A program made the translations under genes and the position numbers. DNA of 64,000 nucleotides from Eutypella sp. D-1. Taxonomy: Eukaryota; Ascomycota; Sordariomycetes; Xylariales; Diatrypaceae. Positions 6,873-37,239 of the stretch are shown one piece after another; the first letter of the stretch is position 1; each line of letters starts with the position of its first letter. Under the pieces are notes generated by a model that had not been told where the DNA came from, searched no databases, and saw only the letters and a program-made list of their open reading frames with translations. The stretch covers positions 434,001 through 498,000 of the forward strand of contig JAJTTP010000022.1 in assembly GCA_023313575.1 (NCBI GenBank), read 5' to 3'.

Positions 6873-8876
6873 CTATGTACTAGTCTTCCACCCACCAACC
6901 TTTCTTCGAATCCTCACAGGCGTCTTCTCCGCTGGCTGCTGCGCCCCCATGCCATAAAACTTGGCGTTCATGGGCGGCGCCTTGCCAGATATGACCTCCA
7001 ACTCGTAGTATTGCGCGAACACGGTGACGCTCCCCATCATTTCTTGCTTGGCAAAGTGCCGTCCTGGGCACATCAGCGCGCCGCCGCCGTACGGTACCCA
7101 GATGCCATCGAGATGTTCCGTAGAGAAGCGCATCTTGGGTTCCTTTTTCTTTTCGTCGTCCAAGGACAACTTTGCTGTCTCGATAGGTGGAACTGACGAC
7201 GACTTGTCCTCATCAGGTACCAGGAAACGCTCGGCCCAAAACTCATCAATTGGTGCTTTCCCGCCGTCCGTGTATGGCTCCCAGGCCTTGCTGTGGTATC
7301 CGATGTACGCGCTAGATAACGTCATGTATGCTCCCTTTTTCAGAGTCCAGGGTCCGATCTGGTGGTCCTTGTGGTCCGGGCTGCGGTTTAGAAGCAGTGA
7401 GATGCGCATGCGCAATACCTCGGCGTAGACACTCTGAGCCAGTGGTGAAGACAGCACGGGAGATAGGTCGAAAGTGGCCGGTCGGTTATTGTCGCTGGGC
7501 GAGGCAGGTGTTACCACTGCTGACCGGAGCTCCGGCAGGATACGCGAGAGGAGGGCCGGATCGCGATAGATCTCAATTAAATACCAGAACGCCATGGGGA
7601 TAGCATTGGCGTTTGCTCTGGAACGTGGCAGGTTTAGTTTCCCCTCTTCATCAAGGACGACAATTGTATGGAGAAGATAATGGGTGATAGAAAGAATGTG
7701 CATTATACTTACGCAATTGTCAAGGCCAGGTCCTCACTCGCTAGCCCGCCATCGTCCATGACGTTGGTATCCTGGCCCCATCGCTGCCGGACCTTCAGCC
7801 ACAGGCTCCCCCAGTACTCGTCCCACTTGGGAGCCTCGTCGCCACAGAGCCTGTAGTCTGAGTGCTCCCGCGCGTGCGCGTGCCACCTCCTGATGTTATC
7901 CAGCATCTTGTTCCTGGCGGCATGGGCCCGCGGTGCCATCCAGGCAGGGTACCTCTTAACGAGGGTGGGTATAGAGTCAGCGAACCTCCAAAAGTCCCCT
8001 TCCAGATCCGGGTTCAGTCGTAGGAGGTGAGGGCCAAACAGCGCCGTGGTCGCAGCCGCGAAGACGCGCGAGCGCCACCATGGGTAGAAATCCTCTATAA
8101 TAACCCACTCGCCCGAGTCGGCGTGATCGCTAGGGTCAACCTTGGCCATGGCCTCGCTGAGGACTGAGGTAAAGCGTACCGCCAGACTGCGCAGAGCATC
8201 TCCCGTGAGATATTTGGCACTGTCGGCATGCTGGTTGGCCCAGATGCGCTGGTGTGTTGGGATCGAGGTACCCGGCAAGGGTTTAGCTTCGATGCCTGAG
8301 TTATCGCCCAAGTACATGGCTGCGTTTCAAGGTCTATCAGTGCGAGGTCCAAGAAGGGCTGACTGCAGGCAAGAAGAGGGGGAAGACATACGCATTACCT
8401 TTGGTGGAGTGCCAAATACATCACGCATCAGTTCGGCCATAACCTTTTTGTTACTCAGGAAGCGGGTGGCTCTTAGGAGGGGGCCGAAATGCTCGGGCTG
8501 GGTGATGAGGTAGCCTCTGAATGCAGGCAGTTGAACTGAGTAAGGGGTGCCATCACCCCAACTACGCCTATCGAACAGTCTGTTGGTATTTGCGACACGA
8601 TAGCCTTTCGTAGAGTCATACTTACAATGTGTTAGCGATGAAACCTTTGGTGTCTCGGACGAAAGGGATGGTGCTCCCCAGCACGGGGATCCAATAAGGT
8701 ATGATGGGCGGCTCCTTGCCATCTTTGCTGTTATGTTTGGTCCGGATGTGTGAGATTAGGGTGATCAAGTACGTAGTTGTAGTTAAGAGAAAAAGCGACG
8801 TCGGAAGAATGATGCGCCAGTTGTAGACTGCTTGCGCCTGTCCGGCGATCTCGACTATATCTTGAATCAAGCCCAT
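6873..8876 (-). CDS. Cytochrome P450, CYP7/8-like
   Basis: ER-anchored haem monooxygenase. The N-terminus has a membrane anchor (about residues 19-43). Further on are a PPIIPYWIPVLGS hinge, a DNSG...PLPG segment typical of CYP7/8-like fungal P450s, an ANANAIPMAFW I-helix region without the classical AGxDT, an ExxR (EVLR) and the haem loop PYGGGALMCPGRHFA with the cysteine ligand. Four exons joined by introns 8625-8580, 8391-8320 and 7712-7618 sum to 1791 bp (596 residues). At the second junction GTATGT is used rather than the upstream GTAATG, because only this keeps the frame (KVM-P-MYLGDNSG). It is transcribed away from the terpene cyclase across a 629-bp shared promoter, which suggests co-regulation. 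Likely role: oxidation of the eremophilane skeleton (inference). Confidence 0.9.
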
Positions 8877-9505
8877 CTTGGTCGAATATGCCAGAGATTG
8901 AAGGCTGAAGCAGCTGGCAATAGTCGCAACGTCGGGAGCTGTACGATAATATTAAGATTCTCGATGTCTGTGGGAATAACAGTGGTCAATGGTTTAATAT
9001 GATGCGGGCAGACGCCTTATATGTTAGTGGAAATATCCGATATGGCAGGCCCGGTGGTCTCGTGAGCGGAATATCAGTATCAGGTAAGTGCCGAATCACT
9101 TACTCATCCTACTCATCCTGCTCGCCATTTGTCCCGTCTTACTCTTGGTAGCACTCGACTTCAGCGACGTCCTACGAGGTCTATGGGCTAAAACTTTGGG
9201 GGGTTATACAGGTGTCAGGGGTGGTTTACATGTCTACAAGTTTCCGACAATAGCTAGCATGCAGACTCCCATACAATTTGTACGGGTATTTACATAGCTA
9301 ATGATGTAATATCCATATCATGTGGTGGGCCTGTGCCCCGTAATAGCTGAAAGACCCCTGAGACCCGTAAGCATCGGTGTAAAAGGGGCTGATGATATAA
9401 AGAAGGCTCCGGGCCCCTTGAGCACCCGCTTAAAATGTACGTCTAAGAGGGGATATTTCTTTATACATTTCTTATTACTTTACCCAGCAGCACTAAGGAA
9501 CCAAT
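8877..9505. promoter_or_regulatory. Divergent promoter between P450 and terpene cyclase
   Basis: 629 bp between the P450 start (8876, minus) and the cyclase start (9506, plus). It holds GGAAATATCCGATATGG (9030-9046), a motif with close relatives in other cluster promoters. A candidate TATA-like GATATAAAG lies near 9394, about 110 bp upstream of the cyclase ATG. Confidence 0.5.
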
Positions 9506-10733
9506 ATGGCTACTAAGAGCTTGACTGTGACCGAGGTCCCGAATGGGTCCTCTATCCCAACAGCACACCACGTATCGGCACCTGGTACGCCTCAAGCGTC
9601 AAGTCAGTTGGAGATACCCCCTTCGCATTTCCAACCACTCTGCCATCCGCTGGAGAAGCAGGTGACAGAGGAGGTAAATGCCTATTTCCTGAAGCACTGG
9701 CCCTTCCCGAACGACAACAGTCGGAGAAAGTTTGTCAACGCTGGCTTCTCCACGGTGACGTGCTGGTACTTTCCAAAGTCTATCGATTCCAGAATCCACT
9801 TCGCGTGTCGGCTTCTGACGATTCTTTTCTTGATCGACGGTAATTAGTCACATCGTATAATCACCACAAACAGGTAGTGTACTGATATGTCCCGGCGTTA
9901 GATCTGCTTGAACATATGTCACTCGCCGACGGCGAAGCCTACAACAACAAGTTGATGCCTATCGCGCGAGGTGATGTCCTCCCCGACCGATCGGTCCCTG
10001 TCGAGTACATGATGTATGATCTATGGGAAAGCATGCGCGCCCATGATTTGGAGCTGGCCAATGAAATTCTAGAGCCGGTGTTTACCTTCATGCGTGCTCA
10101 GACGGACTCTACCCGGCTCCGAAAGATGGATCTCAAGGAATACTTGGATTACCGGGAAAAGGATGTCGGCAAGGGGTATGTTGTGGATGCTCTTCTACCG
10201 TGACCCCTTCTCCGCCGATTGGCAGTCCTAGGCACTTAGGGAAGCTCATCTTGAACATCTGATGCGCCTTTCACCCGTGAATATTAATTGGCCTAGACGC
10301 TAATAATCAAAATTCTAGACTCCTCGCAGCCCTGATGCGCTTCTGTATGGGGCTCCAACTCTCCCCAGAAGAGCTGGCCGTCGCACGCCCAGTCGACATG
10401 AACTGCAGCAAACATCTCTCTATAGTAAACGACATCTGGAGCTTCGAGAAGGAGTTGCTCGCTTCGAAGACCCTTCACGAGGAGGGCGGCGTGCTGTGCA
10501 CTGCCGTGGCCATCTTTGCGGATGGAGCCAACATATCACCAGCGGCAGCGAAGCGTGTGCTGTACTCGCTGAGCCGCGAGTGGGAGACGCAGCATGACCA
10601 GATGACGGCCGAGGTCTTGGCTAAAGTGGACACGCCACAATTAAGGGCTTACATGAAGGGCCTAGAGTATCAGATGAGCGGGAATGAGATTTGGAGCCGT
10701 ACGACGCTGCGATATTTGGCCCCGACAGTGTGA
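9506..10733 (+). CDS. ari1: Aristolochene-synthase-type sesquiterpene cyclase
   Basis: Class I terpene cyclase that converts farnesyl diphosphate to a bicyclic sesquiterpene of the aristolochene/eremophilane type. The first metal-binding motif is DDLLE (about D111-E115), its second Asp codon split by intron 1. The NSE motif is NDIWSFEKE (about N240-E248). Other stretches match fungal aristolochene synthases closely by memory: RGDVLPDR, YDLWESMRAHD, EPVFTFMRAQTD, NCSKHL, ELLASKT and GLEYQMSGNE.WSRTTLRY. Introns are 9840-9901 and 10176-10318, and the three exons sum to 1023 bp (340 residues), close to known enzymes. The first about 45 residues are a variable leader. This is the skeleton-forming enzyme of the cluster. 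The exact hydrocarbon (aristolochene or an epimer/isomer) cannot be told from sequence. Confidence 0.93.
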
Positions 10734-11252: not shown

Positions 11253-12803
11253 ATGCCGTCGGCAGCCATGGAGCCGGAGCGCTTCGCCCTCAACCCGATG
11301 GACAACGTCATGCCCAGGTTTTACGCAAACTTCATCCTGACCTTTGGCCTGAAGCCTGGAGCTAAGTTCTCTGAGGTACACAGCTTGCTACAGGCAAGTT
11401 TGGACACCGCAGGAGAGGAACTCCCAATCATTCGAAGGCGCGTCTTCTCTATCCCACCTGACGAGAAGCATTCGAACGCCGGTCGGCTCGAGGCCCGGGA
11501 ACATCCGGACTGGACGCCCCGGGTCATCTTCAACGATCTCTCGGCGTCATGGCCTGAATATGACGACCTCATCGACGAAGGTCTTTCACAAGACGCGCTC
11601 GATGGCGCGCAGCTCGTCCCTTCAGTCCACGCCGAGTGGGATCTCGAGGTTGAAGGTGCTGCCGGATGCATCCCACAGGCCAACTTCATCAATGGCGGCC
11701 TCTTGCTTTCAGTATGTCTGTTCCACTCACTTGTCGACGGTATGAGCGGCTCCCTACTCCTCAAGATGTGGGCGAAACACATGCGGCTGCATCAGGATGA
11801 TGATCAGGGCGCTGCCGGCCTAACAATTACTTCAGACTGCTGCAACTACAGTCTCGTCTCGGAGGCTTGGGACGCGGCAGGAAACCAACTTCCGTCGCCG
11901 GATGAATTCAAGAACAGCGATAGTGATGCCTGGCGTCTGCTAGGGCTTTTACCGCCATTATCGCCAGAGGAGCTTGCGGAAAAGGCGGAGTTCAGCCTTG
12001 ATCCTACGATGGCACCTCCGCCGCCGCAGATGACAACCACCATCTTCTATATCTCGAAGGCCGCCTTTGCACATCTCACCGCGCTAGCGACGAATTCTGA
12101 AGGCAGTGCCATCACGGCGAATGGCACCCAGGAAGATTCCGTTAAGGAGGATAGTGGCTCGCCCCTAGTCCCTACCGCGAACGACGCCCTCATGGCTCTC
12201 CTCTGGCGCTGCATCATGCGCGCGCGCCAGACGGCCGACCCTTCCAACCCGGCGTACGCCGCGGTGGGGGCGTTGAGCGAGCTGGACACCACGCTGGACG
12301 GGCGGGTGCTATTCAGCCCAGGGTTGCCGTGGGCCTATATGGGAACACTGGTATTCATTGCGACTACGCGCATGTCCGTGTCGACGCTGACATCGCCGTC
12401 GACCCCGCTGGCGACCGTCGCCCACACCGTCCGGCGGGCTGTGGCGGCCATCACGCGGGGGCGCCTGCATGACGCCTACGGCCTCGCGGCGGCCATGCCA
12501 GACTACGCCGCCGCACGGTATCCGTTCGCCACGTTCGACGGTGCCGAGGCATGCTTCACCAGCTTCCTAGGCCTGCCGCTCATGGAGATGCGCTTCGGCG
12601 GCAAGGTATTTGCCAACGGGGGCCTGGTAGACCACCTGCGCCCACCGCGTCGCGAGTTCGATGTGGTGTGTAGGAGGTGTGTCGTCTTGCCTCCACGGCG
12701 ATCGGGTGGTTTCGAGGTATTGCTGAGTTTGAAGAGCAATGAGATGGAGGTCTTAGAGAAGGATCCGGAGTTTGCGCAGTTCGCCCAGTTTATTTGTCAC
12801 TAG
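11253..12803 (+). CDS. Tri101/BAHD-type O-acyltransferase
   Basis: Acyl-CoA (or acyl-ACP) dependent transferase of the trichothecene acetyltransferase/BAHD superfamily. The catalytic HxxxD is HSLVDG at about residue 158, after NGGLLLSVCLF, and the N-terminal NPMDNVMPRFY matches the family start. The second family signature (DFGWG) is replaced by a degenerate MRFGG element near residue 448. It is a single 1551-bp exon (516 residues). ATG 11253 opens the frame, but ATG 11268 has the better context (GCCATGG) and may be the true start. The gene lies right after the terpene cyclase. Because the cluster PKS has no thioesterase, this enzyme is the best candidate for moving the polyketide acyl chain onto a terpene hydroxyl (inference). 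An acetyl donor is the alternative. Confidence 0.88.
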   Translation: MPSAAMEPERFALNPMDNVMPRFYANFILTFGLKPGAKFSEVHSLLQASLDTAGEELPIIRRRVFSIPPDEKHSNAGRLEAREHPDWTPRVIFNDLSASWPEYDDLIDEGLSQDALDGAQLVPSVHAEWDLEVEGAAGCIPQANFINGGLLLSVCLFHSLVDGMSGSLLLKMWAKHMRLHQDDDQGAAGLTITSDCCNYSLVSEAWDAAGNQLPSPDEFKNSDSDAWRLLGLLPPLSPEELAEKAEFSLDPTMAPPPPQMTTTIFYISKAAFAHLTALATNSEGSAITANGTQEDSVKEDSGSPLVPTANDALMALLWRCIMRARQTADPSNPAYAAVGALSELDTTLDGRVLFSPGLPWAYMGTLVFIATTRMSVSTLTSPSTPLATVAHTVRRAVAAITRGRLHDAYGLAAAMPDYAAARYPFATFDGAEACFTSFLGLPLMEMRFGGKVFANGGLVDHLRPPRREFDVVCRRCVVLPPRRSGGFEVLLSLKSNEMEVLEKDPEFAQFAQFICH

Positions 12804-13329: not shown

Positions 13330-14948
13330 CTACGACTCCAACGCAAAGCCATGGGCTAAATATTTCCCATAAAAGCCCTTTGGGTCGTACTTCTCCTGAA
13401 TCGACTGCAGCCGAGGTAGGTTATTTCCATATGTCGGAAACGGCTTCTGGGTGGCTCCGGCGTCGTTAAGATAGATGAAATCAACAAATAGTCCTAGTTC
13501 ACCCGTCTGACTCTTGATCTCGGCCGTGACGTCCTCACAGAACTTGTTGACTCGTTCATCATCCGCCGCATCAGTCCACTGCACAGCGAGGACCGCGGCT
13601 AGTTGTAAGAAATGTTAGCAAGAATACTTCGTATTAGACCTTGTCTATTAAATTTCAGGGTTAGCGACAACTCACCAATGAAGGTCCCGAGTTCAGGATC
13701 AAGACCAAGTGCATTGCCGCCCCGTTTTTCACTCTCGCGTAGCCATGCCGCTGAGATGGGCTGGTATGTAAGCGCGACTGCCACGTCTGCGACGTCACCC
13801 AAGTCTTCGGACGTCATGTCCATGACGGTACGGTTGGCAATGCTCATCGCGCGAGCATCGGTTTTGAAACTCACGCCCCAGAAAATCTGTCTCAAATTAC
13901 GAGCGCCGGTGGTGTTCAGGAAGTTAGGCATCGCCGTCCAAGACTCGTAGACCTCGCCACCAAGCTCAAATTCAACTTGTCCTTCGATAGTGGTGAAGTT
14001 TGCGAAAGCCGCGGGGCTGCTGTCGTTGCCAGGAGCGAATTGAGCTGTGATAACTTCGTGAAATCCTAGTGATGGCGATGCTGCGATTGATGGGATGATA
14101 GCCACGTTGGGATCGTCGACACCTCCACCGGGAGCCATGTACGCCTCTAGCGCGGCGAAGAACTGGTCTGAAGTCTTCGGCTCGGTGACCCGCCACGCGA
14201 TCATTTTCGCGAATGCGGATGTTACCTCAAAGTACTTGACGTCAAACCGAGTGACGATGGCAAAATTGTTATGCCCACCGCGGAGCGCCCAGAACAAATC
14301 TGCGTACTCGCCGTCCTCCGTCGCCTCGACGACGGTCCCATCTGCTAGCACAGCCTCGAAGGCGACCACGTTGTCGCACCCCCAGCCCTGCGTGCTAGAA
14401 AAGTATCCAATGCCTCCCCCAATAAGGACACCGCCGACACCCACGCTGGGATAGCGCCCCCCGTTGACGGCTAGGCCGTACGGCACAAGCCAGTCATAAA
14501 CCTCCCCCCAGGTCTGTCCGGGGCCGATGGAAATCGTACCGGCGTTCTCGTTGAGCGTGCGCTCGTTGAGATTGCTAAGGGAGATGAAGACACCCGGCTC
14601 AACGGACTGCGCGCCTGGTACAGGCATGTGCCCACCGGCACGGACGGAGAACTTCGAGCCCGCCTCCTGGATGATGGTCACAGCCTCGCCGATTTCCGCG
14701 GCAGATGAGGGGAGGAAGACACAACTAGGGGTGAGGAGACAAGTCTGGGACCAGATGGCGAGGGACTGGTTCTCAAACTCGGTGGCGTTACCCGTGTAGA
14801 GGGACTTAGGGAAGGCCGTAGCAAGCTTATTACAAGCTCTGTCAGCTGCTACGGTTGTCTCATTCTGCCGGCGCAGTGGGACCGCTGCGAAAGCGCAAGA
14901 TACGTAGGCCAGCAAGGCAACAGAAAGGCGGGATAATGGGTGGATCAT
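13330..14948 (-). CDS. Secreted FAD-linked oxidase (berberine bridge enzyme-like)
   Basis: Flavoprotein oxidase of the FAD-binding_4/BBE family. A signal peptide (MIHPLSRLSVALLAYVSCAFA) suggests passage through the secretory pathway. The FAD domain shows RAGGH at about residues 103-107, the usual His for covalent flavin attachment, then SIGPGQTWGEVYDWL and GVGGVLIGGGIGYFSS. The Cys that forms the second flavin bond in bicovalent BBEs is not seen (YPSVGVGG there), so attachment is probably through His only. The C-terminal BBE motif is KYDPKGFYGKYL. One intron (13675-13599) and two exons give 1542 bp, 513 residues. The start was set at 14948 rather than an in-frame ATG at 15005, because the signal peptide begins there. 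Probable role: dehydrogenation of an alcohol or ring position in the eremophilane pathway (inference). Confidence 0.9.
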
Positions 14949-15927: not shown

Positions 15928-17793
15928 TCAAGACTCGATTCGATGTTCTTCAAAATGAACCCACACTGGAGCTTTCCACCACATGATATGGCAGTGAGAA
16001 GCTGCCTCGAGATCCAGATCTTTGCTCTCTAATGAAAATGATATGTCATACTTGAACAGCATCTTAGCCATAATAGATGCCATTTGCATGTACGCGAAAC
16101 TGTTATGCCGAAACTAGTTAGTACTCGGAGATTATTAAAGCAGACAGGAGACAGGAAGAGGGGCGCATTTGACCACGTACTTGCGCCCAATACACGCTCT
16201 GTATCCGAGAGAGAACGGCTGGCTAGCTTCCTTGACGTCGGTGCAGTCCAGATCTAGCCAGCGCTCCGGTACGAAGCTCTCCGGCTCGTGGAAGTACTTG
16301 GCGTCGTGGGTGACGGTGAATGCGCTCGTGTACACCTCGGTGCCCTTGGGGACCCAGAAACCGTCTATTTCGCACCCGGGCGAGATGCGAGGAAAGCCCT
16401 GCGACCCGGGCGGGTAAATACGCAGACTTTCGTTGAGGACTGCTTGTAGGTATGGTAGCTGCATCGCTGACTTGGCGTCGATCTCCTCGTAGGTCTTGTA
16501 CCGCGAACGGATTTCTGAAACTAACGTTTCTAATGCCTTGGGAGTCTTGAGTAGATAGTATGACGCGGCTGCGAGGCATGTAGCCGTGGTCTCACCGCCC
16601 GCAATTCTGTTGATGATATGAATGTTACTCAGGTACGACATTTGGGGGGTATAGCGAAGAAATCATCTCACATACATCAATGTGGAGGCATGAGCCGTCA
16701 GCTCCTCCTCCCACAAGGCTCCGCTCTTCACCTTGCTGACCAGGTTGGTAAGAAAGTCTTGCCGCGTAGTGTCTGCCTCTAGTCGCAGCTTAACCTTTCT
16801 CCTCGCCTCGTTCGAGTGCTTGTTCCTCACCGCCACCGTCAAGCTGGGCAGCAGCCACCTTCCCAGTGCGGCCACGACTGGGAATCTCCTCAGATTGTCC
16901 ACTAGTGTGATCTCCAGTAGGTGGTTGAGGATGAGGTCGATCCATTCGTGGTGTTCCTCCCGATCGACACACCCAAAACTCTCACCGAATGCCATCTCAC
17001 CAAGCGTATCAAAGGTAACCATTTCCATCCACTTGACCACATTGATACCCTGTCCGTTGCTCTCCGCATCCAGCCGACCAAGCTTCTGCACAAACTCTAG
17101 AGTCTAAATTAGTGCAATTCGGAGTTCGGTGGAGAGGTGCACGAACCGTCCACTACATGTTGCACAACGGCCTCTTGCTGCTCTAAAGCTTTGATACTGA
17201 ATGCGGCAGTGAGATCCTTCTTCTTGCGCGCGTGTTCCGTCGGATTGCGCTCAGATCCGATGCAGCCCGTTTTGAAGCCTGCTCCATATATATCGTAGAA
17301 CTCGCCTTTGATCAGCTGTGCCTGGCCAGGCGGTGGGTAGCCATAGATGGCTTTCCATGACGAGACGGACGCAAAGGACAGCTCGTTGGGCGACACGCGG
17401 AACACTGGACCATAGCGACGATGTTGTGCCTGGATTGCACGGTGTGATCGGCCCGACATAGTGTGGAAAAAGCGCCATAGCTGCAAGTAACGAGTATTAC
17501 TCTTAGTTCACCGAGGCATTGCAATTATTGGACCACGTATTGGGGGACTAGATCTCACTTACCAGCGATGTTCGCGCCCAAAATGGACCAGGGAATCTTG
17601 CAAGTGGATGGAAATAGAGATTGTAGATCAGCTGGTAGAGCAAAAATGAAACGATGAACCCGGTCACGATTGTAGTCACATCGCGATTGCTCAGTTCACG
17701 ATACATGCGTCCCATCTGATCGATGGTAATCCCAAACTGCGTCCTTGCAGTAGTAAGGGCTCCCTCCAACGTAATCTGCGCCATGATGTTCAA
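15928..17793 (-). CDS. Cytochrome P450, CYP65-like (isotrichodermin C-15 hydroxylase type)
   Basis: ER-bound monooxygenase. After a membrane segment (VTTIVTGFIVSFLLYQLIY) comes the family hallmark [17 protein letters not shown]. Next are an I-helix AGGETT, the ExxR motif ESLR, PERWL and the haem loop FSLGYRACIGRN. Five exons are joined by introns 17562-17481, 17146-17097, 16675-16607 and 16180-16100; they sum to 1584 bp (527 residues). The last exon (16099-15928, stop TGA) is short and easily missed. It supplies FAYMQMASIMAKMLFKYDIS after the Asn codon of CIGRN, which is split by the intron. Layout and motifs resemble the P450 at 27.1-29.0 kb, so the two look like paralogues. An in-frame ATG at 17784 is an alternative start. 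Confidence 0.9.
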
Positions 17794-24148: not shown

Positions 24149-25557
24149 ATGTACGGGACATGGAGATATAATTCCAAGTCCGATAATCAGGAAGTCGTCC
24201 AGGTGCCAGTTGATGCTTCCAATGCTCGACCCGTTGTTCAGCAGGCCTGCAACTCGTGCCGAGGCAAGAAGGTAAATACTGCCCTTCGAATAAGCAAGTT
24301 GCCCAGATGTTTACGCTCTTTCAGACTAAGTGTTCCGGCGAAAAGACCGGCTGTAGTCGTTGTAAAGCATTGTCCAAGCAATGCTCGTACACGAACCGCT
24401 CAGAAAAGAGAGCTACGAAGCGCAGAAGGGCAAATGCAGATGCGGATGTAGATGTAGACCCCGAGATGCAAAATGGGGAACAGTCAAGCGAGGTCAAGCA
24501 ACCAGAGCCCACACCTCAACTCCAACACGAGCTATCGTCATCATCATCATCATCAGAATGTGACCCGTCTTCACGGGCGAAGCGAGATATTGCTTCTCCG
24601 GCGGCAGCTCCATCTGATAGCAGCCCTGAAACTTCTGAGGTCGACATGGGCAATGTAGCGGCTGGGCCAATGCTTAGTTTCACGACAGCCACAGATTACT
24701 TTGAACCGATATCTATCCCGTCGTTTGAGCATCTTGGGACTGCTTCGTCACTCGCCGAAGAAATTTGCCAGTTCCCAGGAGCCGATTTCACGGCCGATCC
24801 ATCCACGCCCGAGAGCTGGTCCAGACCCATCAAGTCTAGAGCGGTATCCAACTCCCACCTAACAGGCACTATTCTCGGATCGTTTCCGTTGACCTCGAGC
24901 TCTACCGGACAGCCGTTCCATCAACTTCCAACGCCCACCTCCCATCCTGCTACCACCACCGGGTCCATTCTGGAGAACAGCCCGAAAGAATTGACCCAAA
25001 TCCGCCCGCCGAGCTCGAGCTTGAATTCAATGCCTCTTAGAGTCACAAGCCCCACTACCCCGCGCCAGGAACCCTGCCTATGCCTGCAGCACGTTGCCTT
25101 CCTCGTGCACGAGCTCGAGATGGGCCAGGCGGACAGCCTCGACGGACAGCTGGTATCCCACAGGGAGGCGGTGGAATACGGCCGGGACATGATGACCTGT
25201 GGCTCGTGCTCGTTGCGGCCCGAGAACTTGATGGTCTTCACCTTCCTGTCCGACCGTCTACTGCAGCTGGCCGAGACGATCACGGATCGTATGGTAACTG
25301 GATCCCAGCAACCAGGCAGAGAGGATCGGTTCACGGTCGCGTTCGGCGAGCTCGAAATCGACTCTGGGCCTGAGTGGGAATTGTTGGTAGCAAATATGGT
25401 GGTGCTGCAGCTGGACTCCCTCATCCAGGTCATGGATCAGCTCAAGGAAAACGCCGTGAAGGTAAGGGCAGAGATTGTTTCTACGAAGGCGGCCGAGACG
25501 GGTAGAAAGCTACAAAAACTGATAGAAAAGATTGTTTCAAGTCATAAGCGATACTAG
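24149..25557 (+). CDS. AflR-type Zn2Cys6 transcription factor
   Basis: Likely pathway-specific nuclear activator. The zinc cluster has six cysteines spaced C-x2-C-x6-C-x6-C-x2-C-x6-C (about residues 34-61); it is split by intron 24272-24324 after RGKK and resumes TKCSGEKTGCSRC. A basic region (EKRATKRRR) follows, then Ser/Pro-rich low complexity. The C-terminal domain, with CLCLQHVAFLVHELE and GSCSLRPENLMVFTFLSDRL, matches the aflatoxin-regulator (AflR) domain. Exons sum to 1356 bp, 451 residues. The start at 24149 gives a compact N-terminus; an upstream in-frame start at 24047 is not excluded. Its position inside the cluster supports control of the surrounding genes, perhaps through the CCG-containing motifs noted in their promoters. 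Confidence 0.9.
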
Positions 25558-25666: not shown

Positions 25667-26747
25667 TCAGGTGGTCTCCCGTGATACGGATGGACGGAAA
25701 TCTGTGGCCGCTTGTTGCAGCTGTGTGAGGAGCTCGTTGTCGCGGCCAAACCACCACGGCCTCAGGTCTGACATAGGCTCCTCAAGCTCCGTGTATGTGT
25801 CGCCCAGTGTCAGGATGACGCGACCATTCCAACGCTCTCCCTCACGGTACCTCTCGCTCATGGCCTCTTTCCCGTAGGCAGCCACGCGCCGGGGCTGTCT
25901 GGCTGTTGCCGCATAGACCAGTGCCCGACCGACGTGATCCGACGAGCTAACGGGCAAGCCCATAGCGATGATCGGAGCAGCCAAATGGGGGGGCAGCAGG
26001 CGTGTTATGGTGGCCGCTGGAGCGATGCCGTTGATGGTAATACCGTCCTCGGTCAGTGTCGATCGCAGTGAACGAATTAACCCGACAAGCTAGGATAACC
26101 AGTATGAGCCTGCGATCGTGGGAAACCGAATCAGAGAAAGGGGATAACCTACACCAGTCTTGGCGGCTGCGTACACGGGCAGGCTCTGCTCTGGCGCATA
26201 GGCCGTCGCACTGGTGGTAATGACAATGCTGCCGTGCGTACCATGCCTACGCATTATGCTTCGCGCCATCTTGACAAAGTAGACGACGGCCTTGAGATTG
26301 ACGTCCAGAACGCGATGAAAGCTGGCGTCAGGCTCGCAGAGTTGGCCGTCCTCGTCGAACACGTCGGAGAAGTAATCTCCCTGCTCCGTCACGGCGGCAT
26401 TTGCAAACGCGAAATCAACCCTCCCCACGGCAGCGAAGGCGGCGCGTAGATCCTCCCAGGAAGAGACATCACATGAGTGGAACTGTATATCTTCAACGGG
26501 CTCCGCCGGGTCGGGTTCTGATACGTCGAGGACGTGTACAGTGGCACCTTTGCGTGCGAGCAAGCACGCTGCTGCTAGACCGATACCGGATGCACCGCCT
26601 TGAATTGGTTAATATCGTGGCATAGTCGGTTAGCTTCGAGGAGGAAGAGGAAGACGGGGAATCAGACTATGGAGACTGACCTGTTATTATGGCTGTCTTA
26701 CCCTCTAGATTGGGGATGATGGATTCGTCGATCTGAAGAAACGCCAT
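25667..26747 (-). CDS. Short-chain dehydrogenase/reductase
   Basis: NAD(P)-dependent oxidoreductase of the classical SDR type. The nucleotide loop [10 protein letters not shown] is built across intron 26680-26599. HVLDVSEPD and CDVSSWEDL give the cofactor and adenine contacts, FANAA replaces NNAG, and the catalytic YAAAK lies at the end of exon 2. Intron 26152-26090 (donor GTAGGT, phase 0) leads to exon 3, which begins LVGLIRSL and ends at 25667. Exons of 67, 446 and 423 bp sum to 936 bp, 311 residues. It lies 3'-to-3' with the regulator and shares a strand with the next P450. Role in tailoring is inferred from location. Confidence 0.88.
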
Positions 26748-27079
26748 GCTTATTAAGAGTGGATATATGGGATGTGATGGAGGGCTCTGGCGTGTAAATT
26801 ACAGTCAGGGAAGATTGAATAAAGCGAACTATATCACATTCTATACGTTTCTCAATTTTAATGCTTCGCTCAGGAAATACGTAGGTAGTATTTTGACAGA
26901 ACCGGCGCCGGCTCCGGTTCCACAACAAAGGTATGTAATACAGACATGATCTTGATCGCCGCTTAACCTAATAGACATAAAGAGGTTCGCCAACTGCCTA
27001 AACTGGTTATTTCCGGTTTTACTCAGTGCTGGCTATCCGATGTGAAAAAATAGCCCCGCCACAACATCACAAGTTTTGT
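26748..27079. promoter_or_regulatory. Promoter of the SDR
   Basis: 332 bp between the SDR start and the 3' end of the next P450. AT-rich; contains a GC-rich ACCGGCGCCGGCTCCGGTTC patch near 26899-26918 with CCGG repeats. Confidence 0.35.
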
Positions 27080-28970
27080 TCATGTATTCTCTAACATAGC
27101 GCTCTCCCTCACTGCCACCATCAATCTGGGCTTCTTCCATAGCGTGTGCATCCGAGAATCCCGATGCCAGTCCAGCTTGTCATCCATCAGCTGAAGGTCG
27201 TATCTCCAGAGTAATTTGGCAAGTGTCGTGCGCATTTCCATCCACCCTAGACTATGATGGTGACAATCTCTCAGCTCGTCTTTCTTTAGCAAGGTTGTTC
27301 GGAGAGGTATTCACTTACTTGCGTCCTAGACATCCCCGCGGTCCTAGTGAGAACGGTTGGGCGGCATCCAACACGTCATCGCTCTGGTTTAACCACCTCT
27401 CCGGTTTGAAGGACTCCGGCTCAGCGAAGTTGGCCGGATCGAGGCTTGCGGCGACAGGGTTTATAAACACGACGACCTGAAAACTATCGTTAGCCTCCCA
27501 AATTTCTTGATTGCCTTTTTAGTCAAATTTACCCCAGCTGGAAGAAAATGGCCATCCACTGAGTCTCCTCCCTTGGGCACTATTCTGGGTAGACCTAAGG
27601 GTAGCGGTGGATAGATGCGCAGTCCTTCTAGAATCACGGCCCGCAAGTAAGGTAGGTGCTGTGTAGCCTGTGCGTCGATTTCGTCAGGACTATTAAATCT
27701 AGTTCTGATCTCGTCCTTCAGTCTCTGCATGGCTTTCGGTCTCTTCAATAGATAGTACGTGATGGCACTCAGCGCCGTGGCTGTGGTTTCGCTTCCAGCA
27801 AGCACGAAATCGGACGCGTGCGCCGCCAGCTGCAAATCAGAGACCTTTTCTGGGTCGCGCTGCTCCAGAATGCGTGTCATGAAGTCTTTGCGAGCGTCGT
27901 CTTTGCGCGAGATACGTCGCTTGACAAGTTTGATTGCATAATCCTCGTTTGTACGCGTGTCTTCTGTGATCTTCTGGATTTTGGATTCGAACAGGGGCAT
28001 CAGCATCGTTACCAGCTCAGGGAAACGCTTGAACATATCGGCTAGCGCACCCTGCGTTAAGGCACCCATGGCGATATCGATCCATGGGTGTGGCTTGTCT
28101 GTTGTCATTGCACATCAGATCACAACACGAAAAGGGCGGAGGGGGGAGAGGAAACGCACCGTCCTCCAAGCCGTTAAACGTCTCTCCGAAAGCCAGGTCA
28201 CCAATAATATCAAACGTCATCATCTCATACGCCTTGGCGATATCCCAGCCACCCTTCCTTCTACCGCGCTCACCTGCTAGGTCCACAAACTTGACGACTG
28301 AAGCTGCTACGAGCTCTTCTTGTTCGGACAGGGATCGGTCGGAGAAGGCATGTGAGAGATATTTCCGCATTTGCCCGTGAGCCTCTACATCTCGCTCACT
28401 CACAATGCTATGGACTCCACGGCCAGCGAAAGAGCCTCCATCGTAGAAATGACTCTTGATGAAGGTTTCATGGCCTGGTCGAAAACCATATATATCTTTC
28501 CATGACTGCGCCGAGTTGAAGGAGAGCTCGTTCGGTGCCGTACGAACCACGGGACCTAAATAACGTTCAGGCTAGGGTGCAATTAAGGCGGTATGGGTGA
28601 GAGAACAATGCACTTAAGTAGACGCACCGTACTTCTTGTGCAAGTCCAATAACTTGTATGGTTGGCGACCGCTAAAGAACCACACGCTGTGTGGAATCTT
28701 TCCGACGTTGATTAGCAGTGGAGCGGAGTGCAAAGGCGATGTTGAGTACGCACATTGCTACAAGCAGCGAGCTTAGGACCGGGGTATTTCGCCAGGGGAT
28801 GGAAATAGAGATTATACAATATCTCTCCGACGGATCGAATGGCAAACTATTCAAGGAGGCAAGACATCAGATCAACACCGAGCCACCATCTTTACTGAGC
28901 TAGAATGGTTGTATTGACTACTTACCACACAAATCAGTAGGCCGATAAGGGCAGACAAGAGCAAGAGCAT
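27080..28970 (-). CDS. Cytochrome P450, CYP65-like
   Basis: Second CYP65-like monooxygenase, built from seven exons. Exon 1 (28970-28926) is a 15-residue membrane anchor ([15 protein letters not shown]). Exon 2 carries [17 protein letters not shown]. Introns are 28925-28847, 28753-28698, 28627-28556, 28159-28099, 27532-27477 and 27318-27252; exons sum to 1500 bp, 499 residues. Motifs are I-helix LAGSETTAT, ExxR EGLR, PERWL and haem loop [12 protein letters not shown]. The last intron splits the Asn codon after CLGR, exactly as in the P450 at 15.9-17.8 kb, which supports common origin. It is divergent from the PKS gene across 413 bp, which argues for co-expression. Substrate unknown; it may act on the terpene or the acyl chain. 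Confidence 0.88.
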
Positions 28971-29383: not shown

Positions 29384-32300
29384 ATGACTATTAACGGCGA
29401 CAAACCCCTACCCCTGACCAATGGGATGACTGACACGAAAGCCCCTAAGACGGAGCCTCTCGCCATCATTGGCATGGCATGCCGTTTCTCTGGAGATGCA
29501 ACAAGTCCAGAGAAGCTGTGGGAACTCGTATCGCAAGGGCGAGATGCGTGGTCGACTGTGCCGGATGAGCGTTTCAATCACGAGGCTTTTTATCACCCGC
29601 AGTCCGACCGTTTAGCAACTATGTCCATGAAGGGTGGATTCTTCCTCCGCGAGGACCCTGGAAAGTTCGACCCGTCCTTCTTCAACCTCTCGTCCGAGGT
29701 AGCCGCCGCTATGGACCCGCAGATCCGGATCCAGCTCGAGATCGTTTTTGAGGCGCTCGAGTCTGCCGGGCTACCGCTATCTTCCGTCTTGGGGTCCAAC
29801 ACGTCCGTTTTCACCGGTTCCTTCACCAAGGACTACCACGACCTACAGCTACGGGACCCTCTGAACATGTCGCGGGCCTTTGTGACTGGTAACTATGCGG
29901 CCATGCTCGCGAACCGTGTCTCGCACTTCTTTGACTTGAAGGGTCCGTCTGTCGCTGTGGACACGGGCTGCAGCACCAGTTTGATGGGCTTACACCTAGC
30001 GGCGCAGAGCTTGCGGACAGGAGAGTCGGATTGTGCAATCGTTGGCGGCGCATGTTTGAATCTGAACCCGGATGCATTCGCGAACTTGTCAACACTGCAG
30101 TAAGTGGGCTGGCTCCCTTTGACTCAATTCATTCTCCTGACAGAGCTGTTCTAGAACCTGTGGACCGGATGGCAAATGCTATGCATTTGACGAGCGTGCA
30201 CAGGGGTACGGTCGTGGCGACGGTATTGCTGCCGTGATTCTCAAGCGTCTGTCTTCTGCCATTCGCGACGGGGACAATGTCTGTGCGGTTGTGCGCGAGA
30301 CCGCCTCAAATCAAGACGGAAGCACGCCAACTATCACAGCACCCTCTTTTTATGCGCAACGTAACTTGATCGAGGAGTGTTATGCGCGTGCGGGACTGGA
30401 TCCGTTAGACACGACTTTTGTCGAGGCGCATGGCACGGGAACTAGAGTTGGTGATCCGGCCGAAGCCCGGGCTATCGGCGAGTCAATGGGAAAAGGGAGG
30501 GCAAAGCCCCTGTACGTAGCCAGTGTCAAGACGAACCTGGGGCACACCGAGGCAGCGTCCGGGCTAGCGGCCTTGATTAAGGTGACTTTGGCGCTACAAA
30601 ACCGACAAATACCGCCGAGCCTGAACTTCGAGAAGGCCAATCCCGAGATCGATTTGGACGGGTTACGATTGACGGTGCCCACAAAGCTTGAGCCATGGAC
30701 ATCATCAAATGGACCTCTACGAGCATCCATTAATAATTTTGGATACGGGGGGACTAACACACATGTCATCATAGAAGAAGCCCCTTTAGTACGTGCAGCA
30801 TTCGTAGCTGCAGGTCGGATCCCATCGAGGCAACTCTTCTTCGTCAGTGCGCATAACAAGGAAACCACACAACAGATGGCCACCAACCTAAAAGATTATC
30901 TAAGGTTGTCTAAAGAGACGCTCTCAGATGCATCAGCGTTTGGAAATCTGGCTTTCACCTTGGCCGAGCGACGAACACGCTTTCCCTGGACTATCGCAGT
31001 GAGCGCCTCGGGGGTTGACGATCTTGCCTCGAGACTCGGCGAGAGTACAGTGCAGCCAGTACAGAGGCTCGAGAAACCACCACGTGTAGGATTTGCGTTC
31101 AACGGCCAGGGTGCGCAATGGTTTGCGATGGGGAGGGAGCTCTACATAGCTTATGAGGTGTACAAGGAAACGATTGATGAGTGCGATCGGATCATCCAGT
31201 CATTCGGCTCCGACTGGTCGCTCGTCGAGGAGCTCGGGCGCAGCAAGGATAGTTCGCGCGTGAATCAAGTCGCATTCAGCATGCCACTTTCGTGCGCCGT
31301 GCAGTTGGCCCTGGTCCGACTTCTACACAGCTTTGGTATCGTCCCCACAGCTGTTACGGGACATTCATCGGGCGAGGTCGCGGCGGCTTTTGCGGCCGGC
31401 GCACTCTCTCTCCACGACGCCATGGCATGTACTTATTTCCGTGGACTTATCACAGCTCGACACCTTGCTGCTACATCTAACGAAGCGAAAAGTCCGGCAG
31501 GTGGTATGCTGGCTGTCGGTCTAGGCAGCACCGAGGCACAACCGTATGTGGATGCCACCACCGCTGGCAAGGTAGTCATCGCCTGCGAGAACAGTCCTTC
31601 GAGTGTCACACTGTCGGGCGACATGGCAGGCATCGAAGAGCTGGAGTCGAAGTTCTCATCAGAAAACATCTTTGCGCGTAAACTCGTGGTGCAATCCGCC
31701 TTCCACTCGCACCATATGGTGCCGTTGGAGAAGGACTACGCCTCAGCACTGAACCAGCACATGGCCAAGCAGCGGAGCTTTGAAGAGAACGTCACTTTCG
31801 TATCTCCCGTGACGGGAACAAGGGTCCAAGATGCCCATCAGCTTGGCCCAGCACATTGGGTTCGAAACATGATAAGCCCAGTGCTGTTCTGCGATTCATT
31901 TCGGAACATGGTTGCTACAGAGCAACCGGACGGCACCATGATACAGAATGTCGACGTGGTTTTGGAAGTGGGCCCACACAGTGCTCTGGCCGGTCCTATC
32001 CGGCAAAACCTTCAAGCTGTGAAGGGTCTTTCGGTGGCTTATGGGTCCTGCCTCGAGCGTGGCCAGGATGCTGTCCTGACCATCCAAACCCTGGTCGGCC
32101 TCCTTTCATCCAAAGGTTATCCAGTCGACAATTCACGCGTGAACGCGCCTGGCGGGCAGGGGGCTCTTGAGTTTGTTCCCGGTTTGCCTTCTTATCCGTG
32201 GAATCACACCCAGCGATTCTGGCATGAGCCACGTGTCAGTATTGAACACAGATTCCGCCCAAATCCGCACCATGACCTTCTCGGAGTTCGTCTACCTGGA

Positions 32301-35300
32301 ACGAGCGATTATTCGCCCATATGGCGACAGATGATCCGTACAGGAGAGGTAAGCCATCAGTGGATGAAGAACCTCTTTTAGTTGTTCGTCGCCCATTACT
32401 AGTTCCGATTACTAACTTTTATTCCAGCTGCCCTGGGTACGCGACCACGTTGTTCAAGGCGACATTGTATATCCCGGAGCAGGATACATTTGCATGGCAG
32501 TGGAGGCTATGCGCCAACTGTATTCCTCCTCTTCTACTCCTACCGCCGTCTTAGGGTACCTACTTGAGGAAGTTGAAATTCTGCGCGCAACTATCGTCCC
32601 TGAGAACAATCAGGGTGTTGAAGTCCAGCTTTTCCTCGAACCCGCCAGCGAGAAGGCCCTCGATGGCAATAAGCGTGTCTTCCGCATCTATTCTCCGGGA
32701 CCGGATGGTGCTTGGGCTGAAGCTGCGCGGGGAATCATCGCTGCGGAGATGATTGCGAACAGATCGGGACCGGCGCTTCGATCTACCCGCGATATTAATT
32801 ATGCTGCCCTATACAATAAGACAGTGACACCGAAGGCGTTTTACGACTCGTTAGCTGCAGTGGGTGTCAACCATGGACAAGCATTCAAGGGACTGGTGGG
32901 TATTCGCACAGGCGACGGTCGTTCGGTTACGACGCTTGTTATTCCTGACTCGGCGGCTCTGATGCCGTATAGGTGGCAGCAGCCGCACGTGATTCACCCT
33001 ACCACTCTAGACGCACTCTTTCAGACCTCCTATACCACGCTCTCTCCCGAAGCACGCATGACCTACGGGACAGCAGTGCCTCGATCAGTCAAGGCAATTT
33101 ACATCTCGTCAAGCATCACCCCCGAGCCCGGTAAGCAGCTTGAGGTCCATTCCCGGTTGCAAAATTACCACCGTCAGGGCTTCGATGTATCCGTGGCGGC
33201 CCACCACTCCCAGTTCGAGGAGCAAATAGTCATTGAGATGGACACGATGAGGTTCCAGTCTATTGGTGGTGCTGATAACAGTAACGAGGACACACGGAAC
33301 AAGATCTGCGCCTTTGAAGAATGGGTGCCGAGCGTCCAGCTCAATCAACCCCGCGAGCTGTTTGGTACCCAACTGCAACGCTCTGCAGACCCAGAGCAGA
33401 TCACAATCAGCCAGGAGCTGACGCGAGCTGCTTTTTATCTAATTCAGGATGCAATGTCACAGCTCACACCCGAAGATGTTGAGCAGCTCGAATGGTACCA
33501 CCACTCCCTTCATCGCTGGATGAAGCTGCAGCTGCAGCTCGCCGACGAAGACAAGCTGGGACCACGCAGTTCTAAATGGGCGCGAGCGACACCTGGTGCG
33601 AGGGCGGCGCTCATCGATCGTGTTGCGGATTCCAGCACAAACGGGGCGCTGACGGTACGCGTGGGCCGGAATTTACTGGCCATTCTCCGCCATGAGCTTG
33701 CGCCTCTCGAGATCATGCTGGAGGGGGGGTTGCTATACCAGTTTTACCGGGAGATGCTGCATTTTACCGAGTCGACAGAGCAGCTCGCCCAGATAGCAAA
33801 AGCTATTACGCGTGAGAACCCTCGTGCGCGGATCCTCGAGATCGGCGCGGGAACCGGGGGCTGCACGGGGCCGGTGTTAGCCGAACTCGGAGGGGATGGT
33901 ACCACTCCCGCTCGCTTCAGCCACTACACCTTCACGGACATCTCGTCGGGTTTCTTCCAGGCCGCGAGAGACCGCTTCGCGGCTTGGGGCGATCTGGTGA
34001 GCTACCAGGCACTCAACGTCGAGAATGAGCCAGCTGAACAGGGCTTCACCGAGAAGTATGACCTTATCATCGCCGCCCAGGTCCTCCATGCGACTAAGAA
34101 TATGTCCGTGACCATGCGCAACGTGCGCAAGCTACTTAAGGATAACGGGAAGTTATTGCTAGTCGAGACAACGAGAGATACGGTCGACGGTCATCTGATA
34201 TTTGGCACCTTGCCGGGATGGTGGCTGAGCGAGGAGCCAGAGCGTCAATACAGCCCTAACATGTCTCTCCAGACCTGGGCACCCATTTTGGAAGGGGCTG
34301 GCTTTACAGGTATCGACTTGGACATCTGGGATTGCGAGCACGAGGCGCATCGCGCTATGAGCGTCATCATGTCGACCGCAATTCCCGAAATTCCACCCGT
34401 ATACGACAATCGGGTAGTGCTGGTTTATGACGCAACGGCTGCGGTGCCCGAGGATTGGATATCTGGCCTAGCGCAAAAGATCAAGGTTGCCACGGGCACA
34501 CCCCCGACGGTGATGGATCTTAAAAACCTAGAGATTGAAGATGAGCAGCAATGTATCTTCCTTTCTGGCTTGGATGGGTCGTCGCAAAAGATCGATAAAG
34601 ACAACTTCAACTCGATTAAGACATTGGCCACTCGTAGCAAGGGCTTGCTGTGGGTCACGACAGGTTCGGCAATGGATTGCCCAATTCCCGAGAACGCGCT
34701 ACATAAAGGCCTCCTACGGACATGCCGTGTGGAGGATCAGAGCAAGCGCTATGTGTCGCTAGATCTAGATCCGTCCGGAGCCAAGTGGAAGCCCGAATGG
34801 CAAGATTGTATAGCCAAACTGTTCGCCAACGTGTTCAACTACGCCGGTGATCTGGCGGTCGAAGATTTCGAGTTCGCCGAGCGGCAAGGCCAAATCCTAC
34901 TGCCGCGACTCGTGCGTGACAGCACTGAGAACGAGACCTTTGTTAACGATTCGAAGAAGGTTGGCATGCAGCCATTCATGCAGTCGCAGCCCGAGGGCCG
35001 GGTTCTCAAGCTCGAGGTGATGAAGCCGGGCCTGCTTGACAGCATCGTCTTCCGCGACGATGAAGACTTCGCGCAGCCACTGCCCGAGGGCTGGGTCGAG
35101 GTAGAACCGCGCGCGTACGGTATCAACTTCCGCGATATCATGAGCGCCATGGGTCAGCTCGACGAAAAGCAAGAACTTGGCGTGGAGAGTGCCGGTATCG
35201 TGACCCGCGTCGGCCCTGATAACGGCATCAGCCATATCCAGCCCGGAATGCGTGTCATTGCCCTGACGCCACACGGCCACATATCTGCCCGAGTTCGTAT

Positions 35301-37239
35301 CCCTTGGCACAACGTCGTAGTCATGCCGAACGACATGGATTATCCAGAGGCAGCCAGTGTCTCCGCCGTCTTCGCAACGGCTTATTACTCAATGTTCGAT
35401 GTTGGCCACCTTGAGAAGGGCGACACCATGTTAGTACACGCCGCTGCCGGGGGTGTAGGTCAAGCATGCATTATCCTCGCGCAGTGGAAAGGCATCCGGG
35501 TCCTCGCCACCGCAGGGACGCCGGAAAAGAGGGCGTTCCTGATGGACACGTACGGTATTCCCCAAGAGCACATATTTTCCAGTCGCGACGATTCCTTCGT
35601 ACAAGGCGTACTCAACGCGACGGGCCATCAAGGAGTGGACGTCGTAATCAACTCACTAGCCGGACCATTGCTCAACGCGACGTGGAACATCGTCGCGCAG
35701 CACGGTCATTTTGTCGAGATCGGGAAGCGGGATATCCACCAAAACAAGGCTCTGGAAATGCGTCCATTTAAGAAAGCTGTGAGCTTCAGCGCCGTAGATC
35801 TTGTCCAGCTGTGCGACACGCGTGGCCACATCGTCCAACGACTTCTTGTGACTGTCATGGGTCTGCTAAGGAGCAAGACGATTCCCAACATTGCGCCAAT
35901 ATCTGTGTATCCAATTTCCGAAATTGCAGGCGCCTTCCGGACGATGCAAGCAGGGAAGCACATTGGTAAAATTGTTGTGGTGCCCAATGCCCACGACGTG
36001 GTGAAGGTGAGTAACAGACTACTTGCTTAGCGCACTATTATTCAAGGGGCGGTTCTTGCTTACTGACAATTAATCCAGACCCTGCCACGTACAGAGACTG
36101 CGGATTTGTCGCCCAATGCCTCCTATCTTATCATCGGTGGGCTCGGTGGGATCGGACGGGTATATGCCCGGTGGATGGTCGATCACGGCGCAAAGAATCT
36201 CATTCTTCTTTCACGCAGTGCCGCCAGCGGCCCACACTCTGCAGCCCTCAAGAAAGAGCTCTCCATCTCAGGTGCAAATGTCGTACTGAAAGACTGCAAC
36301 GCCGCCGACCTGGAGAGCTTGAAGTACGTCCTTGACCAATGCACCAAGAGCATGCCCCCGGTGCGTGGCATTATTCATGGTGGGATGATGCTTAACGACT
36401 CGGTACTCGAGTCCATGAGTCCTAGTCAATGGGCCGATACACTTGCCGCCAAGGTGACGGCCACACAGAACCTTGACAGCCTTTTCCCGGGGGCCGGGGA
36501 CCTCGATTTCTTTATCATGCTCTCCTCAGCATTTGGCGTCATCGGCTCTGCGTCGCAGGCCAACTACACGGCGGGTGGTGCATTCCAAGACGCCGTGGCC
36601 CGCCGTCGCGCTGCTGCAGGCCTGCCTTGCATCACCATCGACCTGGGCATGGTTGACGGCGTAGGATACGTGGCTGAAAAGGAGGCCGGGTTGGCAGACC
36701 GATTGCTCGCCAGCGGCCATCGTCCGCTCACCGAGAGTGAGGTCCTCCAGCTGTTGGATTACTGCGTGAGGCACCCCGTACGCACGCCACGCACGGCGCA
36801 GTTAATCACAGGTTTGGCCAGCAGCGCGGTACGGAAGCTAAGCTGGGGCAAGGAACGACGCTTCGCGGCGCTGGACGACGACGACACCACCAGGGCGGGA
36901 GGATTAGGCGCCGCGGGCGGCAGCTCGGGAGGTTCCGGCGCTAGACTAAGCGAGAGCCTAACGAGTGCGGGCACCGTGGAGGAGGCGGGCGCCATGGTTG
37001 AGGATGCGGTGGTCGAGAAGTTAGCAGAGATGTTTGTGATTTCGAAAGAGGACATCGATGCCACCCAGCCGCTGTCCAAATACGGCGTCGACTCATTGGT
37101 TGCCGTAGAGCTGAGGAATTGGCTAGTACCAACGACAAAGTGCGAGATGTCCATCTTTGATCTGCTTCGTGCGCCATCTTTAAGGGGCTTGGCAGAGAGC
37201 ATTGCTAAAAGAAGTCAAGCATTGCAACTACTAAATTAG
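29384..37239 (+). CDS. Highly reducing polyketide synthase (KS-AT-DH-MT-ER-KR-ACP)
   Basis: Iterative type I PKS of 2549 residues in four exons (introns 30100-30154, 32349-32427, 36007-36078). KS: active Cys about 196 in DTGCSTS (usually DTACSSS), with HGTGT and NLGH downstream. AT: FNGQGAQW, then GHSSG with the Ser at about 643. DH: catalytic His about 977 in DHVVQGDIVYPG. C-methyltransferase: EIGAGTGG at about 1441. ER: HAAAGGVGQA at about 1974. KR: GGLGGIG at about 2181 with Tyr in QANYTAG (about 2326). ACP: phosphopantetheine Ser about 2502 in GVDSLVAVEL. No thioesterase or condensation domain follows. All reductive domains and MT keep their motifs, so the product should be a reduced, alpha-methylated fatty-acyl-like chain left on the ACP. 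Release probably needs the acyltransferase at 11.3 kb. The start codon context (CACCATGAC) is good. Confidence 0.95.

What the first reader, a model, noticed from the sequence alone, without database searches (positions are those of the whole stretch)
6873..37239. Hybrid sesquiterpene/HR-PKS cluster predicted to make an acylated eremophilane
An aristolochene-type cyclase, four P450s, a BBE-like oxidase, two SDRs, a Tri101-like acyltransferase, an AflR-type regulator and a complete HR-PKS are packed in 30 kb. Seen directly: all key motifs of these families. Known: fungal eremophilanes such as PR-toxin start from aristolochene, and Xylaria-type metabolites such as integric acid carry a methyl-branched polyketide ester. 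Inferred: this locus makes such an ester.
Basis: partly seen in the sequence, partly recalled or inferred. Interest (0 to 1): 0.85.

Follow-up and report, generated by a model that had tools for sequence, protein, structure and literature searches.

The report
Fungal acylated-eremophilane gene cluster
A fungal gene cluster that very probably joins an aristolochene-derived terpene to a methyl-branched, fatty-acid-like chain; it is an intact new example of a cluster type already described in Xylaria and its relatives, not a new kind of system.

Summary
Eleven intact intron-bearing or single-exon genes fill 6873-37239: four P450s, an aristolochene-synthase-type cyclase, a BAHD/TRI-like acyltransferase (AT), an FAD-linked oxidase, two SDRs, a Zn2Cys6 regulator and a 2549-aa HR-PKS (KS-AT-DH-cMeT-psiKR-ER-KR-ACP). 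"AflR-type" is not confirmed. The cyclase matches aristolochene synthase at 193 of 286 aligned residues and keeps every catalytic residue checked. Relatives of cyclase, PKS and AT share contigs of identical length (TC+PKS 25, PKS+AT 23, all three 13), so the trio tends to travel together; this supports the hybrid-ester reading independently of motifs. Two papers already describe such architecture: the putative eremoxylarin cluster of Xylaria hypoxylon (PMC10686045) and an Annulohypoxylon truncatum cluster (PMC8403587). The window's closest kin (73-79% identity) form a lineage apart from the X. hypoxylon-type PKS/AT (47-54%), scattered over Sordariomycetes and Dothideomycetes in a way that suggests transfer between classes. 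The methyltransferase is intact here but degenerate in 7 of 8 rows of an Aspergillus/Penicillium/Microsporum-type PKS clade, predicting branched versus unbranched acyl chains. Product, acyl site and acyl-transfer step are inferred. New member of a known kind.

The parts
6873..8876 (-). P450a, 575 aa, exons 8876-8626, 8516-8392, 8319-7713, 7617-6873; only weakly like Pfam p450
   Evidence: PF00067 E 5e-10
9506..10733 (+). Aristolochene-synthase-type terpene cyclase (TC), 340 aa, exons 9506-9839, 9902-10175, 10319-10733
11253..12803 (+). Acyltransferase of the PF02458/TRI-like (BAHD) superfamily, 516 aa, HSLVD motif
13330..14948 (-). FAD-linked (BBE/VAO-type) oxidase, 513 aa, N-terminus looks like a signal peptide by eye
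15928..17784 (-). P450b, 524 aa, five exons
18683..20540 (+). P450c, 568 aa, three exons
21391..22480 (-). SDR1, 306 aa, two exons
24149..25557 (+). Zn2Cys6 transcription factor, 451 aa, zinc cluster split by an intron
   Evidence: PF00172 E 1e-7
25667..26747 (-). SDR2, 311 aa, three exons
27080..28970 (-). P450d, 499 aa, seven exons, paralogue of P450b (41% over 314 aa)
29384..37239 (+). HR-PKS, 2549 aa, KS-AT-DH-cMeT-psiKR-ER-KR-ACP, exons 29384-30099, 30155-32348, 32428-36006, 36079-37239

Best explanation
A hybrid terpene/polyketide cluster. The cyclase turns farnesyl diphosphate into aristolochene; P450s, SDRs and the FAD oxidase oxidise the eremophilane core (a P450/SDR pair at C-8 and a P450/FAD-oxidase pair on the side chain are likeliest, by analogy with the four pathways of PMC10686045); the HR-PKS builds a reduced, methyl-branched short chain; and, since the PKS has no release domain, the acyltransferase moves that chain onto a hydroxyl of the core, giving an eremoxylarin- or integric-acid-like ester. 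Shown: gene content, intactness, motifs, co-occurrence with relatives elsewhere. Inferred: product, order of steps, acyl site, direct ACP-to-terpene transfer, control by the Zn2Cys6 regulator.
For: Cyclase: best PDB matches are aristolochene synthases (E 1e-132), 193 of 286 aligned residues identical, D90, D91, E94, R175, N219, D220, S223, K226, E227, R314, Y315 kept (their roles are recalled). PKS: full domain set and motifs, intact cMeT, no thioesterase, reductase or carnitine-acyltransferase family found in its exons. Acyltransferase: 72 of 73 matches are 36-98% identical and the last only 24%. Co-location by equal contig length: TC+PKS 25, PKS+AT 23, TC+AT 14, all three 13, among 120 listed TCs (of 322), 118 PKSs with a contig length (of 120 listed, 5413 found) and 73 ATs. 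All three sit on one 36-kb contig in Decorospora gaudefroyi. Published parallels: PMC10686045, PMC8403587.
Against: No product, transcript or knock-out. The 13 AflR-independent checks for co-regulation are absent: seven promoters hold no TCGN5CGA site (about 1.3 expected by chance, so uninformative) and no convincing shared word. Equal contig length on megabase contigs is not proof of adjacency, and most listed cyclases (95 of 120) have no equal-length PKS contig in the capped lists. The only X. hypoxylon cyclase listed (g326, 57%) is not beside its PKS g3631/AT g3637. Orthology of the P450s and SDRs to those of known eremophilane clusters could not be tested.
Confidence: 0.78

Rival explanations
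1. Two neighbouring but separate pathways: a PR-toxin-like eremophilane cluster with an acetyltransferase (about 6.9-28 kb) and an independent HR-PKS whose product is released on its own.
For: The AT is distantly related to trichothecene 3-O-acetyltransferase (E 3e-4); PR-toxin clusters hold an acetyltransferase (PMC10686045); no shared promoter motif was found.
Against: TC, PKS and AT families share equal-length contigs across many genera and near-adjacent locus tags; P450d lies between SDR2 and the PKS, leaving no gap; the PKS has no release domain.
Confidence: 0.12
2. The cyclase makes another sesquiterpene than aristolochene (for example another eremophilane or a germacrene), and the ester is built on that core.
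For: Product of a terpene cyclase cannot be read from sequence with certainty.
Against: 193 of 286 aligned residues identical to aristolochene synthase, all checked catalytic residues and the four pocket aromatics kept.
Confidence: 0.07
3. The eremophilane carbons come from the PKS plus a prenyl unit, as proposed for the acremeremophilane (amm) cluster of Trichoderma virens, and the cyclase is accessory.
For: A deletion of an HR-PKS abolished acremeremophilanes (PMC9430172, passages and Results section).
Against: This locus encodes a complete aristolochene synthase; aristolochene is the published precursor for four related pathways (PMC10686045).
Confidence: 0.03

Closest known systems
Putative eremoxylarin cluster xhR3-xhPKS of Xylaria hypoxylon (Sun et al. 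2023, PMC10686045; whole main text read)
   Same: Aristolochene-type cyclase, redox tailoring genes including P450 and SDR, and a PKS assigned to the ester chain.
   Different: X. hypoxylon PKS E0Z10_g3631 and acyltransferase E0Z10_g3637, which I take to be the same cluster without proof, are only 53-54% and 47% identical and fall in other clades. Gene-by-gene comparison was not possible.
Annulohypoxylon truncatum putative meroterpenoid cluster (Kuhnert et al. 2021, PMC8403587; passages)
   Same: hrPKS, aristolochene-synthase-like cyclase, acyltransferases, P450s, FAD enzyme, oxidoreductases; an A. truncatum PKS (P0132, 59%) joins the window's larger PKS clade.
   Different: Described with two acyltransferases and three P450s; here one acyltransferase and four P450s.
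PR-toxin cluster of Penicillium roqueforti (known from PMC10686045 and recall)
   Same: Aristolochene cyclase, P450s, SDR, an acyl (acetyl) transferase.
   Different: No PKS named in its description in PMC10686045; sequences not compared here.
Squalestatin tetraketide synthase (P0221)
   Same: HR-PKS with the same domain motifs including intact cMeT, ER, KR; 43-44% identical. That it makes a dimethyl-branched C8 chain is recalled.
   Different: Another PKS group in the tree; its join there is flagged as a long-branch meeting.

Membership tests
Fungal aristolochene synthase | Metal-binding DDLLE and NDxxSxxKE motifs and associated Arg/Tyr/Lys residues | tested here: met
Fungal aristolochene synthase | Close sequence relation to solved aristolochene synthases | tested here: met
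   (193 of 286 identical); tree
Fungal aristolochene synthase | Product is aristolochene | not testable with these tools
   needs expression and GC-MS
Highly reducing type I PKS | KS, AT, DH, ER, KR, ACP with catalytic motifs, cMeT present | tested here: met
Eremoxylarin-type cluster (PMC10686045) | Aristolochene-type cyclase together with a PKS and P450/SDR tailoring genes | tested here: met
Eremoxylarin-type cluster (PMC10686045) | Orthologues of the common C-8 P450 (XhL7) and SDR (XhL6) | not testable with these tools
Eremoxylarin-type cluster (PMC10686045) | PKS and AT orthologous to those of X. hypoxylon | tested here: inconclusive
   53-54% and 47% identity, separate subclades; which X. 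hypoxylon genes are xhPKS was not verified
Trichothecene 3-O-acetyltransferase (Tri101) family | Close homology to Tri101 | tested here: not met
   same superfamily only: TRI-like_N E 1.7e-6, PDB Tri101 E 3e-4 behind plant BAHD enzymes
AflR-type regulator | Zn2Cys6 binuclear cluster | tested here: met
AflR-type regulator | AflR-family domain outside the zinc cluster | tested here: not met
   no second family at E up to 0.5; that Pfam holds an AflR model is recalled

The most novel reading that the evidence does not exclude
The locus represents a separate, horizontally moving lineage of cyclase/HR-PKS/acyltransferase clusters in which the acyltransferase family is a dedicated partner that unloads the branched polyketide straight from the PKS carrier domain onto an oxidised eremophilane, giving an ester class distinct from the eremoxylarins.
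Probability: 0.35. Interest if true: 0.45.

Novelty: new member of a known kind. Interest (0 to 1): 0.3.

Why it matters
Eremophilane esters from Xylaria include antibacterial compounds (eremoxylarins; passages of PMC10971283 and PMC13293291). In the papers seen here the PKS and acyltransferase steps of such clusters are assigned by gene content, so an intact, compact example with an unambiguous acyltransferase partner is a useful test case. The methyltransferase comparison gives a simple prediction: methyl-branched acyl chains from this lineage and from the X. hypoxylon type, unbranched ones from most of the Aspergillus/Penicillium/Microsporum type.

Tried and rejected
Cyclase and acyltransferase as one gene (gene-finder output): rejected, the cyclase frame ends in a stop at 10731-10733 and relatives encode them as separate proteins. 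PKS fused to the next ORF (37522-39813), considered as a carnitine-acyltransferase tail: rejected, that ORF is a HET-domain protein. First cyclase model (312 aa with one extra intron): replaced by the 340-aa model after aligning five relatives; searches used the older model. A first P450d model failed at the last splice junction and was mended by choosing another AG acceptor. AflR sites and shared promoter words gave nothing usable (background mostly genic, 31,200 patterns tried, three of the seven promoter stretches overlap coding or 3' ends by about 20-100 bases). Whether a second cyclase/PKS pair lies on C6 (cyclase at 219 kb, KS at 244 kb) stays open; the C6 PKS piece is only 28% identical to the window's. 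The host species and class were not identified; the 98% identical acyltransferase P0242 has no name.
Full report
Setting. The window is G000:C15:434001-498000 of an unnamed 48.5-Mb assembly of 72 contigs. A simple gene finder trained on the window and own-genome stretches plus hand splicing gives the gene list in 'parts'. To the left is a GH3 glycoside hydrolase (3305-6042); to the right a HET-domain gene (37522-39813) and an MFS transporter (41871-43241). Whether the MFS gene belongs to the cluster was not settled.

Cyclase. The corrected model has 340 aa; alignment with five relatives shows that a stretch first taken for an intron is coding. The best solved matches are aristolochene synthases (2e4o E 1e-132, 1dgp E 3e-117; that these are the Aspergillus terreus and Penicillium roqueforti enzymes is recalled). 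193 of 286 aligned residues are identical. In the numbering that puts the first Asp of DDLLE at 90, D90, D91, E94, R175, N219, D220, S223, K226, E227, R314 and Y315 are kept, and so are the four aromatics of the pocket (printed there under numbers six lower; roles recalled).

PKS. 2549 aa in four exons with KS, AT, DH, methyltransferase, NAD-binding psi-KR, ER, KR and ACP families and no thioesterase, reductase or carnitine-acyltransferase family. Twelve of the 120 listed relatives were aligned: KS, AT, DH, ER, KR and ACP motifs agree throughout apart from small variants, and the cMeT motifs agree in nine and are lost in three (P0171, P0174, P0175). Its best solved relative over the 1200-aa middle frame is the lovastatin nonaketide synthase (E 4e-60).

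Acyltransferase. One exon, 516 aa, PF02458 plus TRI-like_N, HSLVD motif. PDB neighbours are plant BAHD enzymes (best E 3e-7) and trichothecene 3-O-acetyltransferase (E 3e-4). Of 73 protein matches, 72 have 36-98% identity and the last 24% (only the 7996 candidates sharing most words were scored). In its own genome the next match has 28%.

Co-occurrence. The answers give each hit's longest contig. Among 120 listed cyclases (of 322), 118 PKSs with a contig length (120 listed of 5413) and 73 acyltransferases, equal contig lengths occur for TC+PKS 25 times, PKS+AT 23, TC+AT 14, all three 13. On a 36-kb contig of Decorospora gaudefroyi all three sit together. Locus tags are close in Xylaria multiplex (TC 398, PKS 405), Cercophora (TC 2952, AT 2953, PKS 2959), X. 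hypoxylon (PKS 3631, AT 3637), X. arbuscula (526, 532) and Penicillium digitatum (7811, 7815). Caveats: equal length on megabase contigs does not prove adjacency; Viridothelium virens gives different contig lengths for cyclase (56 kb) and PKS (97 kb), and Apiospora kogelbergensis appears with different records for PKS and AT; no X. multiplex or Madurella acyltransferase is in the list; the lists were capped, so counts are lower bounds.

Phylogeny. In trees of 53 cyclases, 48 PKSs and 42 acyltransferases, each the window plus rows I chose from the hits, the window's nearest rows are X. multiplex, Viridothelium virens, D. gaudefroyi and Apiospora kogelbergensis and, for the acyltransferase, Trypethelium eluteriae and X. 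digitata besides an unnamed 98% match. These are 73-79% identical to the window. The X. hypoxylon PKS (54%) and acyltransferase (47%) are in another clade. Several long branches were flagged, none near the window. In a careful 21-row PKS tree the copies of Viridothelium and Decorospora (Dothideomycetes, recalled) are nested among Sordariomycete ones; holding the 15 other, presumed Sordariomycete rows together is rejected (p-AU 2.9e-9). Reservations: the window was counted among the 15 although its class was not established, the group was named after a first tree had been seen, and contamination of lichen or small-contig assemblies, or old duplication with loss, is not excluded.

Methylation. 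cMeT motif I fits in 105 of 120 listed PKSs, fails my pattern in 14 and has no sequence in 1. Seven of the eight rows of the Aspergillus/Arachnomyces/Microsporum/Penicillium clade are among the 14 (P0163, P0169, P0170, P0171, P0174, P0175, P0218); Arachnomyces (P0155) keeps the motif. P0173 and P0219, not in the tree, are also degenerate; the other five of the 14 are small variants with the HATK motif kept (P0157, P0204, P0229, P0236, P0237). So this lineage should methylate and most of that clade should not.

Tailoring and regulation. P450b and P450d are paralogues (41% over 314 aa of a partial P450d); the others are distant. Which P450 does which step cannot be told. The regulator has only a Zn2Cys6 domain. 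Seven promoter stretches (5590 bases) hold no TCGN5CGA site; the background rate of 0.23 per kb would give about 1.3, so the absence says little, and the most enriched of 31,200 words are AT-rich against a mostly genic background. There is thus no evidence here for or against co-regulation.

Own genome. Three other aristolochene-synthase-like loci exist (C6, C1, C34; 43-53% identity over pieces); acyltransferase matches elsewhere are at most 29% identical. So this is the only copy of the trio seen in the assembly.

Literature. PMC10686045 (whole main text; supplement not seen) proposes the X. [quoted passage not shown] of that cluster it reports expression of xhR1 only. PMC8403587 (passages) describes an A. 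truncatum cluster with hrPKS, aristolochene-synthase-like cyclase and two acyltransferases. PMC9430172 (passages and Results) claims a polyketide origin for acremeremophilanes. Six searches (listings) showed me no functional proof of the PKS or acyltransferase step; I did not open most listed papers, and subscription journals are mostly not held. That integric acid carries a branched polyketide ester is recalled.

Verdict. Observation confirmed; interpretation supported (0.78); new member of a known kind; interest 0.3.

Noticed in passing
P0163, P0169, P0170, P0171, P0173, P0174, P0175, P0218, P0219 (PKS relatives): Methyltransferase motifs are degenerate in PKSs of the Aspergillus/Penicillium/Microsporum type that share contigs with the same cyclase or acyltransferase families, predicting unbranched esters.
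   Followed up: partly
P0123, P0125 (PKS), P0243, P0247 (AT), P0002, P0003 (TC): Dothideomycete (lichen and marine) copies are 73-79% identical to the window's and nested among Sordariomycete copies: possible transfer of the cluster between classes.
   Followed up: partly
G000:C6:218939-219843, C1:4164558-4165608, C34:1805632-1806733: Three further aristolochene-synthase-like loci in the same genome; the C6 one has a ketosynthase 25 kb away.
   Followed up: partly
G000:C21:16222-23664: A distant acyltransferase relative (27%) lies about 2 kb from a ketosynthase whose downstream piece is the closest PKS relative (38%) in the genome.
   Followed up: no
window 37522-39813 and 54115-56202: Two HET-domain (heterokaryon incompatibility) genes flank the right side of the cluster.
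   Followed up: no
window 44001-52000 and 62001-64000: GC drops to 43-47% against 50-56% in most of the rest of the window; possible decayed repeats, not examined.
   Followed up: no
literature, PMC9430172: The amm cluster's 'prenyl transferase' beside an HR-PKS and an O-acyltransferase might be a misnamed terpene cyclase; its sequences could not be checked here.
   Followed up: no
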